A DNA stretch of 20,437 bases. It comes from a virus. This document shows, in pieces, positions 3,070 to 16,792 of the stretch (position 1 is its first letter; each line of letters opens with the position of its first letter). The translations under genes and the position numbers were made by a program. Under the pieces are notes generated by a model. The model was not told where the DNA came from. It made no database searches and was given only the letters and a program-made list of their open reading frames with translations. Location of the stretch: positions 1 to 20,437 of the IMG/VR virus record IMGVR_UViG_3300028569_000205. One strand, 5' to 3'.

Positions 3070-3729
3070 ATGAATACTCGCACCATACCCAAATCATCCC
3101 CTAGACGTAAGCTCACAAGGGCAGAGATAGCGAAGGGCTTAGAAGCTGTCCCAATAGCTCAAGTCATGCTAGGCGCAGTGAATGCCAAAACAACAAAGCT
3201 AACCTACAAACAGCAAAAATTCGCGCAGGCACTCGCCCTGGGCGAGACAAAAGCTGGCGCATATCGAGCGGCATATGACACGCACAGTAGCCCTGCGATT
3301 CAATCTCATGAAGGACTAAGGCTTTCGAATCACCCTAAAATCGCTCTACAAGTGGAAGCCCTCAAGCTGGCGGCTGAAGCTAGGAATTACGCTACCCCTC
3401 CCGCGCTGCGTGCCCTGGTGATAGAAAGACTTACAGCGCACGCTATCGATGACACGATTAACCCGGCCCAACGGCTCCGCGCATTAGAGCTACTGGGAAA
3501 AATTACGGAAGTCGCAGCATTCACAGAACGGCGCGAGATTGTGCGGGTAACTGACAGCGTAACGGCGCGGGACAAACTATTGATGTCGCTTCGTGAAGTA
3601 CTTCAAGCAAGCGCGATTGATGTAACACCGAAACCCGAAACGCTGCCAGCTTCCGACTTGCTCGTCGCGCATGACCCCATCGCCCTGGACGAAGCCGGGG
3701 CCGACCCCCACGCACCCCCCACCCCCTAG
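3070..3729 (+). CDS. terS: Terminase small subunit (TerS)
   Basis: This 219-residue protein is expected to bind the phage packaging site and hand DNA to the large terminase. A helix-turn-helix region near residues 44-75 reads LTYKQQKFAQALALGETKAG followed by AYRAAYD, the usual TerS pattern (T.KQ.KF...L.G.....AY..AY). The downstream helices AQRLRALELLGKITEVAAF are also typical of TerS-like proteins in podoviruses. The C-terminus is low-complexity and proline/aspartate-rich (ADPHAPPTP). It is the first rightward gene; terL follows one gene later. I see no Shine-Dalgarno before ATG 3070; TACAGT at 3058-3063 could make the transcript nearly leaderless. The family call is from sequence pattern, not a search. 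Confidence 0.85.
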   Translation: MNTRTIPKSSPRRKLTRAEIAKGLEAVPIAQVMLGAVNAKTTKLTYKQQKFAQALALGETKAGAYRAAYDTHSSPAIQSHEGLRLSNHPKIALQVEALKLAAEARNYATPPALRALVIERLTAHAIDDTINPAQRLRALELLGKITEVAAFTERREIVRVTDSVTARDKLLMSLREVLQASAIDVTPKPETLPASDLLVAHDPIALDEAGADPHAPPTP

Positions 3730-3817: not shown

Positions 3818-3877
3818 CCTAGCGTAACAGGTGTTACACTAAGGGTTTTTACCTAGAGTAACAGGTGTTACACTAGG
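3818..3877. repeat. Two tandem 26-bp palindromes (operator or pac candidate)
   Basis: Each copy has the core GTAACAGGTGTTAC (3824-3837 and 3858-3871), dyad-symmetric except for the central GG. In the second copy the symmetry continues outward: CCTAG, one mismatched base, core, one mismatched base, CTAGG (3852-3877). The first copy has CCTAG on the left and CTAAG on the right. The copies are 34 bp apart, a little over three helical turns. They sit 40-125 bp upstream of the promoter at 3918-3946. A related 19-bp copy occurs at 16262-16280. Confidence 0.85.
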
Positions 3878-3917
3878 GGTAGGGGGGTATAAAATTTAGC
3901 GCGATGGGCGGATGTGT

Positions 3918-3946
3918 TTGATTTGGGAATGCCCCCGGTATATAAT
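3918..3946 (+). promoter_or_regulatory. Sigma70-type promoter for the packaging operon
   Basis: TTGATT (3918-3923), a 17-base spacer, then a perfect TATAAT (3941-3946). Transcription would begin near 3953 and give a leader of about 35 bases before the ATG at 3988, which has GGAG six bases upstream. It can drive the LexA-like gene, terL and the overlapping genes behind them. The tandem palindromes lie upstream of it. Confidence 0.8.
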
Positions 3947-3987
3947 CAGTATGAAACAGGGGTGGGGTATATTTTTTGGAGAAAACG

Positions 3988-4212
3988 ATGACACCGGCGC
4001 AGAAAGAGATTTACTTGGTGATAGATGAGTGGTGGAAGAGGCATGGGTTTGGTCCGTCTGTGGATGATGTGATGTTGATGACGGGTGAGACTGGGAGGGG
4101 GAATGTTCACAGGAAGATGTTGAAGTTGGTGGAGTTGGGGTTGTGTAAGGGGTTGAGGAACCGTCCTCGGTCGATACGGCCTGCGAATTTGAGGGTTCGG
4201 GATATTGTATGA
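3988..4212 (+). CDS. Stand-alone LexA-type winged-helix DNA-binding protein
   Basis: This 74-residue protein starts at ATG 3988, with GGAG six bases upstream; the in-frame TTG at 3976 lies before that site. It begins MTPAQKEIYLVIDEWWKRHG, then FGPSVDDVMLMTG, NVHRKMLKLVELGL and NRPRSIRP. This matches the N-terminal winged-helix domain of LexA repressors in order and spacing (LT..Q.E.L..I..Y....G..PS..EI...., then a recognition helix, a KG.L-like wing, and RPR.I). The catalytic Ser/Lys peptidase domain of LexA is absent, so RecA-stimulated self-cleavage is not expected. Its stop overlaps the terL start by four bases. It may regulate the packaging promoter through the palindromes upstream; that link is inference. 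Codon use is unusually rich in G and T. Confidence 0.82.
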   Translation: MTPAQKEIYLVIDEWWKRHGFGPSVDDVMLMTGETGRGNVHRKMLKLVELGLCKGLRNRPRSIRPANLRVRDIV

Positions 4213-5756
4213 ATGAGATGACGGATGATGAGTTGATGGGTTTGCTCAAGGCGTTGCCGGAGGATAAGTTGTTGTCGGTGATTGATGCGGTGCCGAAGGG
4301 TCAGGGTGAGCATTTGCATATGATGATGTCGGACTATCTGGAGTCTTTGAAGAGAGAGAAGGCTCAGAGGGAGTTTATGGCGTTTGTGAATCTAATGTGG
4401 CCGACGTTTATTGCGGGCAAGCATCATGCGATCATGGCTAATGCGTTTGAGAGGGTGGCGAGGGGTGAGTTGAAGAGGTTGATTATTAATATGCCGCCAC
4501 GGCATACTAAGAGTGAGTTTGCTTCGTATCTGTTACCGGCTTGGTTTTTGGGTCAGTATCCGAGTAAGAAGATCATTCAGTCGTCCAACACGGCTGAACT
4601 GGCGGTGGGGTTTGGGCGGAAGGTTAGGAACCTGGTGGATGGGGATGTTTTTTCCAAGGTTTTTCCGAATGTGAGTTTGAGGCACGACAGTAAGGCGGCT
4701 GGCCGGTGGTCTACGAACTCTTCGGGTGAATATTTTGCTATTGGGGTGGATGGAACGGTAACGGGTAAGGGGGCGGATCTGTTGATAATTGATGATCCGC
4801 ACTCTGAGCAGGAGGCTAAACTGGCTGAAAGTGACCCCGCGATTTTTGATAAGGTGTATGAGTGGTATACGTCGGGTCCAAGACAGCGACTTCAGCCGGG
4901 TGGGTCTATTGTGATGGTGATGACACGCTGGTCTAAGAGGGATTTGACTGGTCAGGTGTTAAAAGCTGCCGCGCAGAGGTCTGGGGAAGAGTGGGAGGTG
5001 ATTGAATTTCCCGCGATTTTGCCGTCTGGTAAGGCGATGTGGCCGGAATTTTGGGATATTAAAGAGCTTGAGAACCTAAAAGCAGAGTTACCCTCATCAA
5101 AATGGCAAGCGCAGTACATGCAGTCGCCGACTTCGGATGTGAGTGCGATCATTAAGAGGGAATGGTGGAAGATTTGGGATGATGATGAGCCGCCGACTTA
5201 TGAGTTTGTGATTCAGTCATGGGATACCGCGTTTTTGAAGACGGAAAGGGCTGACTTTTCTGCATGTACAACGTGGGGGGTCTTTTATCGGTCAGACGAC
5301 AAGGGTGTTTTGCGTCCAAATGTGATTTTGCTCAATGCTTTTAAGAAGCGGATGGAGTTTCCCGAGCTTAAACAGCGGGCGTATGAAGAATTTAAGGAAT
5401 GGAACGTGGATTCACTGATTGTGGAAGCCAAAGCGGCGGGTTCTCCGTTGATATTTGAGTTAAGAGCGATGGGAATCCCGGTCCAGGAATTTACACCGAC
5501 CAAAGGAAATGACAAAATAGCACGGCTAAACGCTGTTTCTGATCTTTTTGCTTCTGGCCACGTTTGGGTGCCTAATACGCACTGGGCTGAGGAGTTGGTT
5601 GAGGAAGTGGCAAGTTTTCCGTCGGGTGAGCACGATGACTTGGTAGACTCTATGAGCCAAGCGTTACTCAGATACAGAAGAGGTGGGTTTATCCAGCTGG
5701 CCTCGGATGAGGAAGATGAGCCAATCCAACACAGACGCAAAGAGCCGTACTATTGA
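4209..5756 (+). CDS. terL: Terminase large subunit (ATPase/nuclease packaging motor)
   Basis: This 515-residue protein is the DNA-packaging motor, cutting concatemers and pumping DNA into the prohead. A variant Walker A PPRHTKS lies at about residues 96-102 and Walker B LLIIDD at 191-196. A coupling motif follows at VMTRW (about 237-241). The C-terminal RNase H-like nuclease carries three acidic positions: SWDTAF (Asp339), LIVEAK (Glu406) and HDDLVDS (Asp476/477/480). Length is normal for the family. The start ATG 4209 overlaps the stop of the LexA-like gene by four bases, and the stop shares one base with the next gene. The first two thirds use AGG, TTG and GGG codons heavily, unlike later genes. 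Domain architecture resembles the P22/T4-type enzymes; the packaging strategy cannot be told from this alone. Confidence 0.97.
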   Translation: MNEMTDDELMGLLKALPEDKLLSVIDAVPKGQGEHLHMMMSDYLESLKREKAQREFMAFVNLMWPTFIAGKHHAIMANAFERVARGELKRLIINMPPRHTKSEFASYLLPAWFLGQYPSKKIIQSSNTAELAVGFGRKVRNLVDGDVFSKVFPNVSLRHDSKAAGRWSTNSSGEYFAIGVDGTVTGKGADLLIIDDPHSEQEAKLAESDPAIFDKVYEWYTSGPRQRLQPGGSIVMVMTRWSKRDLTGQVLKAAAQRSGEEWEVIEFPAILPSGKAMWPEFWDIKELENLKAELPSSKWQAQYMQSPTSDVSAIIKREWWKIWDDDEPPTYEFVIQSWDTAFLKTERADFSACTTWGVFYRSDDKGVLRPNVILLNAFKKRMEFPELKQRAYEEFKEWNVDSLIVEAKAAGSPLIFELRAMGIPVQEFTPTKGNDKIARLNAVSDLFASGHVWVPNTHWAEELVEEVASFPSGEHDDLVDSMSQALLRYRRGGFIQLASDEEDEPIQHRRKEPYY

Positions 5757-6247
5757 TGAACACACATCTCACTTTACCGTCGGTATCTTTGATATCCAAA
5801 GAGCTTTTGAGGCAGGCTTCGGAGACCTATAACTGGGTGCCGTATTACAATTTTCTCGTCACACCTGTACCTTGGAAAATACTTGAAAAAGACCCGTTTC
5901 TTGTCAAGCTGTCCGAAAAACGAATGTTCCACGCTGGCATCTTAAAGATGGATCCTAACACTTGTTACAACTGGCATGTAGACACGGACCGAAAGGTTGG
6001 AGTTAATATGCTGTTGTTGGGCGAGGACAGTCAGTGTCTTTTTTTAGAAGGTGAGCCGGGTGTGGTGGTCAAGACAAAAGAGCTTGAGTACAAGCCGGAC
6101 ACTTATTATGTGTTCAACACGCAGGTTCCTCATATGGTGATCAACACCATTGGCCCGCGCTATTTATTCAGCATTCAGTTTGTAGAGCTGGGGCTGACGT
6201 TTGATCAACTTTGCAAAGACATAAAAGGAATGGATTATGGCTATTGA
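5756..6247 (+). CDS. Probable Fe(II)/2-oxoglutarate-dependent oxygenase-like protein
   Basis: This 163-residue protein starts at ATG 5756, overlapping the terL stop (TGATG). Its core fits a double-stranded beta-helix hydroxylase of the aspartyl/asparaginyl beta-hydroxylase kind. WHVDTDR supplies His74-x-Asp76. A strand GVNMLLLG follows, then FNTQVPHMVIN supplies distal His126, and GPRYLFSIQF nine residues on supplies Arg135, placed to hold the 2-oxoglutarate carboxylate. The complete HxD...H...R set implies a working iron site. Substrate unknown: a host protein, a phage structural protein or a nucleobase are all possible. It sits between terL and the portal gene and overlaps the latter by 11 bases, so it is made with the packaging proteins. 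The family call is from motif reading and could be a non-enzymatic cupin instead. Confidence 0.72.
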   Translation: MNTHLTLPSVSLISKELLRQASETYNWVPYYNFLVTPVPWKILEKDPFLVKLSEKRMFHAGILKMDPNTCYNWHVDTDRKVGVNMLLLGEDSQCLFLEGEPGVVVKTKELEYKPDTYYVFNTQVPHMVINTIGPRYLFSIQFVELGLTFDQLCKDIKGMDYGY

Positions 6248-8783
6248 AAAATCGCTGTATGCAGCGCCACAGGGTCTGGAAGAGCTTTTAATGGATGAAA
6301 CATCTCCTCAAATTGAGATTGAGATTGAAGACCCCGAGTCTGTGACCATTAACACTGGAGATGTGATCATTGAGATCACACCAGAGGCAGATGAGGACTT
6401 CAATGCCAACTTGGCTGAATACATTGATGACGGCGTTTTGCAAAGCATCGCATCAGATTTGATCGGCGATTACGATGAGGATATCTCTAGCCGAAAAGAC
6501 TGGATGCAGACTTATGTAGACGGCCTTGAGCTTTTGGGAATGAAGATTGAAGAACGTAGCGAACCATGGGAGGGTGCGTGCGGGGTGTATCACCCTATGC
6601 TTTCTGAAGCACTGGTGAAGTTTCAGTCCGAGACCATGATGGCCACATTTCCTGCCGCTGGCCCGGTCAAGACGCAGATCATCGGCAAAGAGACTCCGGC
6701 AAAGAAAGAATCTGCGCAGCGTGTGGCAGACGACATGAACTACCAGCTGACGGACGTGATGAAAGAGTACCGTCCCGAACACGAGCGCATGCTGTGGGGC
6801 TTGGGCTTGGCAGGTAATGCGTTCAAGAAAGTGTACTTCGATCCCGGCATGGACCGTCAGGTTTCCTACTTTGTCCCGGCTGAGGATATCGTAGTTCCTT
6901 ATGGTGCAAGCAACTTGGAATCCTCACCCCGCGTTACTCACGTCATGCGCAAGACAGAAAACGAGTTACGCAAACTACAGGTGGCGGGGTTTTACTGCGA
7001 CATTGACCTAGGGACTCCAGACAACGTGCTTGACGAGGTGGAAAAGAAGATTGCCGAGAAGATGGGCTTTCGTGCCACTTCGGACAACCGCTTTAAACTC
7101 TTGGAGATGAATGTAGACCTCGACCTTGAGGGATATGAACACAAAGACAAAGACGGAGAGAAGACAGGAATTGCTCTGCCTTATGTCGTGACCATTGAAA
7201 AGGGTTCAAGCAATGTTTTGGCAATCCGCCGTAACTGGGAGCCAGATGATGAGACCCATACCAAACGTCAGCACTTCGTTCATTACGGATATGTTCCGGG
7301 ATTTGGCTTCTATTGTTTTGGCCTCATCCACCTCATTGGGGCTTTTGCTAAGTCAGGCACTTCTCTTATTCGTCAGCTTGTTGATGCTGGTACGCTGAGT
7401 AACCTGCCCGGTGGGTTTAAAACACGGGGTATGCGGATCAAGGGTGATGACACCCCAATTGCTCCGGGCGAGTGGCGTGATGCTGATGTGGCCAGTGGGG
7501 TGCTGCGGGATAATTTACTCCCTCTTCCTTATAAGGAGCCGAGTCAAACACTGATGACGCTGCTCAACCAGATTGTGGAGGAGGGCAGACGATTTGCCAA
7601 CGCCGCCGACCTAACGTTGAGTGACATGAGCGCACAAGCGCCCGTGGGGACTACGCTGGCAATCCTTGAACGCACTTTAAAGAATATGAGTGCAATTCAA
7701 GCGCGGGTGCATTACTCAATGAAACAAGAGCTAGGTCTCTTGAAAAGAATCATTGCCGATTACGCGCCAGAGGATTATGACTATCAACCCAGCGAGGGCA
7801 GTCGCAAAGCCAAAAAATCGGACTATGAAGATATCAGTGTTATTCCTGTAAGTGATCCCAATGCGTCAACCATGGCGCAAAAGATCGTTCAATACCAGGC
7901 CGTTCTACAGCTAGCGCAGGGCGCACCACAGCTATATAACCTACCGCTCTTACATCGTCAGATGTTGGAAGTTCTAGGAATTAGGGAAATACAAAAACTA
8001 GTTCCTATGGACATTGATCAAAAACCCACAGACCCGGTATCAGAAAACCAAAACTTACTCTCTGGAAAACCTGTCAAGGCATTTATAGCTCAAGATCACA
8101 AGGCGCACATAATTGTCCACATGGCTGCTATGCAAGACCCAAAGATCATGTCTCTGTTACAGCAAAACCCAATGGCCCAACAAATGCAGGCATCCATGAT
8201 GGCGCACATCAGTGAGCACCTGGGTTTTGAGTATCGCAAACAAATTGAGGAGCAGCTGGGAATGCAGTTGCCTGCACAGATGGATGAGTCTGGTGAAGAG
8301 GTGCAGATGTCGCCAGAAGTTGAAGCCCGGTTGTCTCCGTTGTTGGCTCAGGCCGCACAACAGTTACTTCAGAAAAACCAAGGCGAAGCGCAACAAGCCC
8401 AAGCGCAGCAGCAAGCGCAAGATCCTATTGTGCAAATGCAGCAACAAGAACTTCAACTCAAAGCTCAAGAAAATCAGCGTAAGGCCGCAAAAGATCAGGC
8501 CGACAACGAACTTAGAGCACAGCAAATACAAGTTGAACGAGACCGCATTCAGGCGCAGCAATTGACTGAGGACAAGCGAATTCAAACAAAACAAGAGATG
8601 GAAGACAAAAAGGTCCGTATGGATTTGCTTAAAACCTCCGCGCTGATGCAGGGTGATAGACAAACCCAGATGATGGACTTGACTGTTGATGTACTCAAGC
8701 AACTTTCTAATAAGAGTCAAGAAGAAAAACTGCGAATGATGCAAGAGCGCATTCAAAATCGACGCGGAAAGACAGGTGAATGA
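6237..8783 (+). CDS. Portal protein
   Basis: This 848-residue protein forms the dodecameric vertex through which DNA enters the head. The order of parts fits podovirus portals: an acidic N-terminus (to about residue 75), RKDWMQTYVDGLELLG, then SEPWEGACGVYHPMLSEALV near residues 110-130. Next come a stem region with FVPAEDIVVPYGA, the tunnel-loop region PLPYKEPSQTLMTLLNQI, and AILERTLKNMSAIQARVHYS. Residues about 700-795 are glutamine-rich and strongly coiled-coil, with many QQ and QAQ units, as in the P22 portal barrel. It is longer than the P22 portal (725). The start ATG 6237 overlaps the preceding gene and the stop overlaps the next. Assignment rests on pattern and on the position directly after terL. 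Confidence 0.9.
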   Translation: MAIEKSLYAAPQGLEELLMDETSPQIEIEIEDPESVTINTGDVIIEITPEADEDFNANLAEYIDDGVLQSIASDLIGDYDEDISSRKDWMQTYVDGLELLGMKIEERSEPWEGACGVYHPMLSEALVKFQSETMMATFPAAGPVKTQIIGKETPAKKESAQRVADDMNYQLTDVMKEYRPEHERMLWGLGLAGNAFKKVYFDPGMDRQVSYFVPAEDIVVPYGASNLESSPRVTHVMRKTENELRKLQVAGFYCDIDLGTPDNVLDEVEKKIAEKMGFRATSDNRFKLLEMNVDLDLEGYEHKDKDGEKTGIALPYVVTIEKGSSNVLAIRRNWEPDDETHTKRQHFVHYGYVPGFGFYCFGLIHLIGAFAKSGTSLIRQLVDAGTLSNLPGGFKTRGMRIKGDDTPIAPGEWRDADVASGVLRDNLLPLPYKEPSQTLMTLLNQIVEEGRRFANAADLTLSDMSAQAPVGTTLAILERTLKNMSAIQARVHYSMKQELGLLKRIIADYAPEDYDYQPSEGSRKAKKSDYEDISVIPVSDPNASTMAQKIVQYQAVLQLAQGAPQLYNLPLLHRQMLEVLGIREIQKLVPMDIDQKPTDPVSENQNLLSGKPVKAFIAQDHKAHIIVHMAAMQDPKIMSLLQQNPMAQQMQASMMAHISEHLGFEYRKQIEEQLGMQLPAQMDESGEEVQMSPEVEARLSPLLAQAAQQLLQKNQGEAQQAQAQQQAQDPIVQMQQQELQLKAQENQRKAAKDQADNELRAQQIQVERDRIQAQQLTEDKRIQTKQEMEDKKVRMDLLKTSALMQGDRQTQMMDLTVDVLKQLSNKSQEEKLRMMQERIQNRRGKTGE

Positions 8784-15860: not shown

Positions 15861-16792
15861 TGGCAAAAACTACTGGTACAACAGCATTCAATCTGGACAT
15901 GAATGACCTCATTGAAGAGGCGTTTGAGCGTTGCGGCCAGGAACTTCGTACAGGATATAACTTTCGCACTGCTCGGCGTTCATTGAACTTGCTGACAATT
16001 GAGTGGGCCAATCGGGGACTTAACTTTTGGACCGTAGAGCAAGGCCAGATTCCCATGGTTACTGGGCAAGCAATTTATCCTATGCCAACAGACACCATCA
16101 ATCTTTTGGATATGGTAATTCGGCAAAATAACAGCACAACCAATCAAACCGATATCAACATCAGTGGCATATCAGAGTCTACTTATATGAGCGTGCCCAA
16201 TAAATTGGCGCAGGGTAGGCCCATCCAGGTTTGGTTCAACCGCCAGTCAGGTCAAGAAAACGTAACAGCTGTTACACTAGCCGCCACAATCAGCGCAACG
16301 GCTACGACCATCACAGTGTCTAATGTTTCTGCTCTTGCAACGGCTGGATTTATCAAGATCGGTACTGAGACAATTAGCTACCCCAACGTTAATCCAGTAA
16401 CAAATCAACTGCTTAATTGTGCTCGTGGGCAGAACTACACCACGGCAGCAGCTCACACAAGCGGTGACGCTATTTCAGTCCAGAATTTACCCGCTATTAA
16501 CGTATGGCCAACCCCTAATGCACCGGGCGATCAGTACATGTTTGTGTATTACCGCATGCGCCGCATTCAAGATGCTGGCTCTGGTGTAACAGTGCAGGAT
16601 ATTCCGTTCCGTTTTATTCCCTGCATGGTGGCTGGTTTGGCGTATTTACTCAGTATGAAATTACCCAATGTAGATCCAGGTAGGGTTGGTGGGCTAAAGG
16701 CGGAATACGAACAACAGTGGGACTTGGCGCAAGCTGAAGACAGAGACACTTCGCCGTTGAGATTTGTACCGAGAAACATGAACTATGCCTAA
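15860..16792 (+). CDS. Head-tail adaptor or tail-tube-like protein with inserted beta domain
   Basis: This 310-residue protein begins ATG 15860, overlapping the previous stop. The N-terminal helices DLIEEAFERCGQELRTGYN and TARRSLNLLTIEWANRGLNF and the later VYYRMRRIQDAGSG, FRFIPCMVAGLAYLLSMKLP resemble P22 gp4/T7 gp11-type connector proteins of podoviruses. Residues about 130-207 look like an inserted beta-sandwich module (ATATTITVSNVSALATAGFI, IGTETISYPNV, LLNCARGQNYTTAAAHTSGD), a cassette also found in unrelated tail proteins. Without it the protein would be about 230 residues, near the 228 of the 17498 gene. A palindrome related to the operators near 3850 lies at the start of the insert. 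It probably sits below the portal. Confidence 0.75.
   Translation: MAKTTGTTAFNLDMNDLIEEAFERCGQELRTGYNFRTARRSLNLLTIEWANRGLNFWTVEQGQIPMVTGQAIYPMPTDTINLLDMVIRQNNSTTNQTDINISGISESTYMSVPNKLAQGRPIQVWFNRQSGQENVTAVTLAATISATATTITVSNVSALATAGFIKIGTETISYPNVNPVTNQLLNCARGQNYTTAAAHTSGDAISVQNLPAINVWPTPNAPGDQYMFVYYRMRRIQDAGSGVTVQDIPFRFIPCMVAGLAYLLSMKLPNVDPGRVGGLKAEYEQQWDLAQAEDRDTSPLRFVPRNMNYA
16262..16280 (+). repeat. Third copy of the terS-terL palindrome, inside a coding region
   Basis: GTAACAGCTGTTACACTAG at 16262-16280 is a perfect 14-bp palindrome (16262-16275) with the same right flank as the copy at 3858-3876, differing by one base (C for G at the centre). The left outer arm CCTAG is missing. It lies at codons 135-141 of the 15860 gene, at the edge of its inserted module. 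Confidence 0.8.

What the first reader, a model, noticed from the sequence alone, without database searches (positions are those of the whole stretch)
3818..3877. Tandem 26-bp palindromes between terS and the LexA-like gene
Two nearly perfect dyads with the core GTAACAGGTGTTAC and outer CCTAG/CTAGG arms stand 34 bp apart in the only long non-coding gap of the packaging module, upstream of a clear promoter. Such paired operators usually bind a dimeric regulator; the LexA-type winged-helix protein encoded just downstream is the obvious candidate. The site does not look like E. coli LexA boxes (CTGT-N8-ACAG). A TerS-recognised pac site is the competing explanation.
Basis: partly seen in the sequence, partly recalled or inferred. 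Interest (0 to 1): 0.62.

Follow-up and report, generated by a model that had tools for sequence, protein, structure and literature searches.

The report
Phage operators for a ParB/KorB-like protein
Two matching DNA palindromes beside this phage's packaging genes are most likely docking sites for a chromosome-partition-type (ParB/KorB-like) protein encoded elsewhere in the phage genome, and the sites and that protein have changed together across dozens of related phages.

Summary
The tandem palindromes are real: core GTAACA-GG-TGTTAC, 34 bp apart, cumulative GC-skew minimum at 3819. Comparison of related IMG/VR loci shows a family of sites, TAACA-N(1-3)-TGTTA. The outer arms are self-complementary, shared within a genome and different between genomes. 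Sites recur at three conserved places: the terS/lexA-like gap, the 1 kb upstream of a ParB-like gene, and upstream of an exonuclease/ERF operon. The LexA-like neighbour is not what sets the sites: proteins identical over 74-75 residues sit beside four different arm sequences. The determinant is very probably a 270-residue phage ParB/KorB-fold protein with no detectable ParA. Its recognition-helix residue 132 is the best of 245 columns for predicting the base next to the core (K/R/H with G in 16 of 17; otherwise 1 of 18). Phages whose helix lacks xMT[VI][GS]R lack the sites (2 of 33 against 35 of 42). Residue 132 aligns with ParB R173, which contacts parS guanine 1; the site reads like parS (GTTTCA-CG-TGAAAC) with TT changed to AA. 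Binding is strongly inferred, not measured. The function, most likely KorB-like transcriptional control of early and packaging operons, is less certain. No source found describes it.

The parts
3818..3843 (.). Palindromic site 1: CCTAGC-GTAACA-GG-TGTTAC-ACTAAG (core 3824-3837)
   Evidence: homologous sites in the terS/lexA-like gap of relatives
3852..3877 (.). Palindromic site 2: CCTAGA-GTAACA-GG-TGTTAC-ACTAGG (core 3858-3871)
   Evidence: same pair with 34-bp spacing in L083/L084/L085/L086/L088/L089
16259..16278 (.). Third site, inside a structural gene: AAC-GTAACA-GC-TGTTAC-ACT (core 16262-16275)
   Evidence: the same site in the homologous gene of G001 at 28165, though the two proteins are 90% identical
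5955..5968 (.). Degenerate, possibly chance copy CTAACACTTGTTAC inside the cupin-like gene
   Evidence: weak; no counterpart found among the G001 sites
3070..3729 (+). Small terminase subunit terS (219 aa), upstream border of the gap
   Evidence: phrog_51 terminase small subunit, E 6e-6
3918..3946 (+). Candidate sigma-70-type promoter TTGATT-N17-TATAAT for lexA-like/terL
   Evidence: 10 of 12, but not enriched over shuffles; also scored in L085/L086
3988..4212 (+). Stand-alone LexA-type winged-helix protein (74 aa; 78 aa if TTG 3976 is used): neighbour, not the specificity determinant; possible KorA-like partner (speculation)
   Evidence: (phrog_3502); against it as the determinant
4209..5756 (+). 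Large terminase subunit terL (515 aa)
   Evidence: relatives

Best explanation
The palindromes are parS/OB-type operators for a phage-encoded ParB/KorB-like DNA-binding protein of about 270 aa: ParB N-terminal fold, helix-turn-helix, then a linker and a long C-terminal coiled coil. In the relatives its gene lies about 8-11 kb upstream of the terS gap; it falls outside this 20-kb fragment. Each half-site in the window is G-TAACA. The invariant TAACA/TGTTA core goes with the conserved MT[VI][GS]R of the recognition helix, and the base outside the core goes with helix residue 132. The protein likely dimerises through its coiled coil, and flexible linkers would explain why 1-, 2- and 3-bp spacers all occur. 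It probably acts like KorB of plasmid RK2: loading at a few scattered sites in front of its own PAPS-reductase/ParB-like/helicase operon, the exonuclease/ERF recombination operon and the lexA-like/terL operon, and setting their transcription in concert, possibly from a distance. Shown computationally: site family, positions, co-variation, fold. Inferred: binding itself, dimer geometry, transcriptional role, and its sign (repression more likely than activation).
For: Private half-sites recur at distant sites of one genome: outer 4 bases identical in 44 of 57 distant pairs within genomes, against 11% between genomes. Three hot spots relative to the ParB-like gene: 0.26 sites/kb in the 1 kb upstream, 0.16-0.27/kb at +8 to +11 kb (terS gap), 0.11-0.22/kb at -8 to -10 kb (exo/ERF operon), nearly none in between (gene identities). 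Co-variation: residue 132 ranks first of 245 columns for base -1 (z 6.2 for all bases, 7.8 for G/non-G); K/R/H with G 16/17, others 1/18, Fisher 7e-8. Helix xMT[VI][GS]R: sites in 35/42 loci; other helices 2/33, Fisher 5e-12; core density 0.12 against 0.009 per kb. Fold: Foldseek ParB 7bnk E 3e-9, KorB 8qa9 5e-8, ParB-parS 6t1f, Noc; structural alignment to KorB over model residues 1-143, Z 10.8; phrog_1033 ParB-like, E 2e-19. PMC7383237: ParB R173, directly after G170-K171-S172, H-bonds parS guanine 1; phage K132 directly follows G129-C130-S131. No ParA found in 9 relatives. Site position relative to the lexA-like gene is loose (8 to >300 bp), as for KorB OB sites, 4-10 bp or 45 to >1,000 bp upstream of promoters (PMC11790492).
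Against: No binding or expression data. The tree-based check is weak: each trait changes 7 times, but only 2 well-supported independent pairs exist, 1 agreeing and 0 opposing, so shared ancestry explains part of the Fisher p-values. Exceptions: L313 (K but A), L276 (A but G). Spacer length varies 1-3 bp even within a genome, unlike parS. Seven canonical-helix loci have no qualifying site, and only 13 of 41 representatives have one within 1.2 kb upstream of the ParB-like gene. Several TerS columns also correlate with base -1 (best z 6.0, D127). The window's own ParB-like gene is not in the fragment. Promoters at the sites are not demonstrated.
Confidence: 0.75

Rival explanations
1. Operators of the adjacent LexA-type winged-helix protein, which represses its own promoter and terL.
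For: Adjacency; LexA-like wHTH; the terS-gap-lexA-like cassette is conserved; among the larger relatives examined, lexA-like and ParB-like genes tend to occur together.
Against: Proteins identical over 74-75 residues (L003, L004, L095, L096, L099) beside ACTA, AGTG, ACTC and AGGG arms; 18 of 77 pairs at 95% identity or more differ in base -1; best column z 1.5. Sites recur at other operons.
Confidence: 0.06
2. A pac site recognised by TerS, marking where packaging starts.
For: Immediately downstream of terS; some TerS columns correlate with base -1 (z up to 6.0 at D127); TerS pairs at 95% identity or more nearly always share base -1 (35 of 36).
Against: The same private half-sites sit in front of the exonuclease/ERF and ParB-like operons many kb away and inside structural genes. 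The top TerS column lies outside residues 44-106, the part matched by all the small-terminase families and the likely place of an HTH (inference). The ParB-like helix predicts presence or absence of sites.
Confidence: 0.07
3. The same ParB-like protein binds the sites, but its job is genome segregation, condensation, replication or packaging assistance (a true parS/centromere) rather than transcription control.
For: ParB fold and parS-like site; scattered intergenic and intragenic sites; GC-skew minimum exactly at the site in the window.
Against: No ParA hit (PF13614) in 9 relatives; the sites cluster upstream of three operons rather than at one locus; the skew minimum partly reflects gene strand, as cumulative skew in long relatives is near-monotonic.
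Confidence: 0.2
4. RNA hairpins (terminators or processing signals) that happen to be palindromic.
For: The stems could fold; outer arms co-vary; spacers of 1-3 nt fit hairpin loops.
Against: No terminator call; no clear G-U over A-C excess among mismatches (63 against 43); the loop-proximal TAACA/TGTTA is invariant in sequence, and arms are identical between distant sites of one genome.
Confidence: 0.03

Closest known systems
KorB/OB regulatory system of IncP plasmid RK2
   Same: ParB-family N-domain plus HTH fold (KorB 8qa9 aligned over model residues 1-143, Z 10.8); a few palindromic operators scattered over a mobile genome at variable distance from promoters; sites at several operons, including the protein's own.
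   Different: Encoded by phages; operator GTAACA-N(1-3)-TGTTAC, not the KorB operator (TTTAGCSGCTAAA, from memory); no KorA identified (the LexA-like protein is only a candidate); CTP binding and repression untested.
Chromosomal ParB-parS (and Noc-NBS)
   Same: Half-site layout G-T-x-x-C-A with a 2-bp spacer in the commonest form (parS GTTTCA-CG-TGAAAC, from memory; phage GTAACA-GG-TGTTAC); the recognition-helix residue equivalent to ParB R173/Noc Q158 tracks the outer base (PMC7383237).
   Different: No ParA partner found; TT changed to AA in the half-site; spacer 1-3 bp; the Glu of the ParB ENxxR motif is Ala in the family alignment (invariant A90), so CTP hydrolysis is doubtful.
ParB-like proteins of other phages (phrog_1033; Vibrio phage CHOED, Aeromonas phages MQM1 and 1233)
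   Same: Same N-domain plus HTH; E 2e-19 to phrog_1033, 30-39% identity over the first half in named phages.
   Different: Annotated as partition protein or 'streptomycin biosynthesis operon regulatory protein'; no binding sites found described in the papers searched.
LexA/SOS boxes
   Same: A LexA-type wHTH gene lies next door; the Gram-positive box GAACN4GTTC (from memory) superficially resembles AACN4GTT.
   Different: The LexA-like protein does not track the site sequence.

Membership tests
ParB/Noc/KorB protein family (for the proposed binder) | ParB N-terminal domain followed by HTH | tested here: met
   Foldseek ParB 7bnk E 3e-9, KorB 8qa9 5e-8; Z 12.1 ParB, 10.8 KorB; phrog_1033 E 2e-19. 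Pfam ParB_N matched only below its cut-off, in 3 of 9 genomes.
ParB/Noc/KorB protein family (for the proposed binder) | Recognition-helix residue (ParB R173) contacting the outer base of a palindromic site | tested here: inconclusive
   Strong co-variation of the equivalent residue 132 with base -1; the contact in ParB is from PMC7383237. Correlation only; limited phylogenetic independence.
ParB/Noc/KorB protein family (for the proposed binder) | CTP binding and sliding-clamp formation | not testable with these tools
   GxxRxxA is present as GFHRxxA and R94 of the ENxxR region is invariant, but the Glu is Ala; activity unknown.
ParABS partition system | Cognate ParA ATPase | tested here: not met
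   PF13614 absent from 9 relatives while found in 14 of 14 control genomes; records may be incomplete, and only this one ParA family was searched.
KorB/OB-type global regulator | Several operators scattered upstream of different operons | tested here: met
   Three positional hot spots upstream of three operons.
KorB/OB-type global regulator | Transcriptional repression of the target promoters | not testable with these tools
   Needs reporter assays or RNA-seq.
LexA operator | Site sequence tracks the LexA-like protein | tested here: not met
   Identical proteins with four different arms; best z 1.5.
TerS pac site | Site at or near terS, recognised by TerS | tested here: inconclusive
   Sites are not unique to the terS region, but TerS columns correlate with base -1 (z 6.0) and packaging starts could not be mapped.

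The most novel reading that the evidence does not exclude
A widespread group of aquatic podovirus-like phages carries a ParA-less ParB turned into a lytic-cycle master regulator: a sliding-clamp-type protein loaded at parS-like sites co-ordinates recombination, replication and packaging operons, possibly with the LexA-like protein as its KorA-like clamp lock. Its specificity diversifies quickly through one recognition-helix residue, giving a natural one-residue/one-base recognition code.
Probability: 0.3. Interest if true: 0.8.

Novelty: new variant of a known kind. Interest (0 to 1): 0.62.

Why it matters
It assigns a binding protein, a sequence code and a likely regulon to palindromes in a large, mostly uncultured group of aquatic phages (TerL about 53% identical to Pelagibacter phage HTVC027P). 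It offers dozens of natural ParB-like proteins with matched sites, on which the ParB R173-guanine 1 rule, established by structure and mutagenesis, can be tested. It also makes directly testable whether ParB-type clamps regulate phage transcription.

Tried and rejected
Exact search of a 21-bp piece of the site in viral contigs and blastn of the gap against named phages: nothing. Named phages carry no tblastn relative of the LexA-like protein. LexA-like protein as binder: rejected. Terminator/RNA hairpin: no terminator call, no clear G-U asymmetry. Replication origin from the cumulative GC-skew minimum at 3819: not taken as the main reading, because long relatives show near-monotonic skew following gene strand, though a local G-rich burst after the lexA-like start is family-wide. 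Host-factor site: unlikely, since arms are private to each phage genome and track a phage protein. Genomes with a ParB-like protein but no TAACA core (G016, G017) were scanned de novo for other recurrent palindromes; nothing convincing, but their recognition helices differ (SPSFVSE, SKMMVTR). The named-phage terL loci L187-L190 and the dispersed-palindrome phages gave no ParB-like hit in the stretches held. The papers searched and the HTVC023P-type paper PMC9599517 do not mention ParB or palindromes in these phages; most subscription journals are not held.

Full report
Observation. Two 26-bp dyads at 3818-3843 and 3852-3877, 34 bp apart, occupy the 246-bp gap between terS and a LexA-like gene. 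The core occurs 13 times in the window at up to 3 mismatches, against 1.31 in shuffles. A third perfect core palindrome lies inside a structural gene at 16262-16275.

Relatives. The window is a 20.4-kb IMG/VR fragment. TerL, TerS and LexA-like searches gave about 160 loci. Named kin are Pelagibacter phages HTVC027P/HTVC023P, phage 023Pt_psg01 and phage DSL-LC04 (TerL 51-56%). The cassette terS-gap-lexA-like-terL is conserved, and most gaps carry one to five palindromes of the form TAACA-N-TGTTA. Spacers in 91 unique gap sites are 2 (44), 1 (30) or 3 (17) bp, and the base next to the core is symmetric in 86%. In 22 longer records the true pattern matched in 20; the reversed control pattern matched in 1.

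Arms are private to a genome and shared at a distance. In G011 the half-site ACTGTAACA recurs perfectly at 5211, 15293, 15365, 30544 and 60810; in G007 AGTGTAACA at 33607 and 54214; in G015 ACCTTAACA at 7758 and 27015. Across 23 genomes or loci, 44 of 57 distant pairs share all four outer bases, against 11% between genomes. This points to a trans-acting phage protein of diverging specificity, not an RNA hairpin.

The neighbour is not the determinant. LexA-like proteins identical over 74-75 residues (L003, L004, L095, L096, L099) lie beside ACTA, AGTG, ACTC and AGGG arms; 18 of 77 pairs at 95% identity or more differ in base -1; the best column has z = 1.5.

Which protein? Site C lies upstream of an operon of PAPS reductase-like, ParB-like HTH and ResIII-helicase genes; site B upstream of PDDEXK exonuclease and ERF recombinase genes; site A is the terS gap. 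Relative to the ParB-like gene, sites pile up at -1 to 0 kb, +8 to +11 kb and -8 to -10 kb, with almost none between.

Co-variation. Scans with the ParB-like protein gave about 180 loci. In 35 representatives under 85% identity, residue 132 is the best of 245 columns for base -1: K/R/H with G 16 of 17, others 1 of 18. Phylogenetic control is limited: each trait changes 7 times on the tree, with only 2 well-supported independent pairs. Separately, loci whose helix matches xMT[VI][GS]R carry sites in 35 of 42 cases, others in 2 of 33.

Fold and the parS parallel. The AlphaFold2 model (mean pLDDT 79, pTM 0.50) matches ParB, KorB and Noc. In Caulobacter ParB, R173 follows G170-K171-S172 and hydrogen-bonds parS guanine 1, and Noc uses Q for adenine (PMC7383237). 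The phage residue K132 follows G129-C130-S131. Written as half-sites, parS GTTTCA-CG-TGAAAC and phage GTAACA-GG-TGTTAC differ by TT to AA (and the spacer). This residue alignment is mine, made without gaps from the published residue numbers; the parS sequence is from memory.

Function. No ParA hit in nine relatives. Site-to-gene distance varies from 8 to over 300 bp, as for KorB operators, which act from 4-10 bp or 45 to >1,000 bp (PMC11790492). A KorB-like, co-ordinating transcriptional regulator is the most economical reading; segregation, condensation or packaging roles remain open. Among the larger relatives examined, LexA-like and ParB-like genes mostly co-occur, so the LexA-like protein could be a partner, but this may only reflect clade membership.

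Limits. All evidence is computational; the window's own ParB-like gene is outside the fragment; two exceptions (L313, L276) break the residue-base rule; relatives are mostly incomplete metagenomic records.

Noticed in passing
window 3880-5600; relatives aligned at the lexA-like start: Sharp local G (and T) excess on the + strand just after the palindromes: GC skew 0.58 at 4001-4400, fading over about 1.5 kb; median 0.41 just after the lexA-like start in 58 relatives. Cause unknown (strong transcription, R-loop or origin?).
   Followed up: partly
G021 (L020) 606-726 and 53608-59450; also L015, L026, L033, L059, L067: Related-terminase phages without LexA-like or detectable ParB-like genes carry many dispersed CTAACA-n-TGTTAG palindromes (11 in G021). 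A different binder probably recognises a similar core.
   Followed up: partly
L167:14751-17189 (G001 terL): TerL of the closest long relative holds an intein (PF14890, E 2e-14); displaced or partial TerL matches in L098, L100, L141, L142, L146 suggest insertions there too.
   Followed up: partly
window 5753-6247: Cupin-like gene between terL and portal, shared among the genomes compared only with G001.
   Followed up: no
G001 50404-59169, G006 22405-34401 and homologues: Giant ORFs of about 1,800-4,000 codons next to site B; weak ParB_N matches inside two of them (G006, G009).
   Followed up: no
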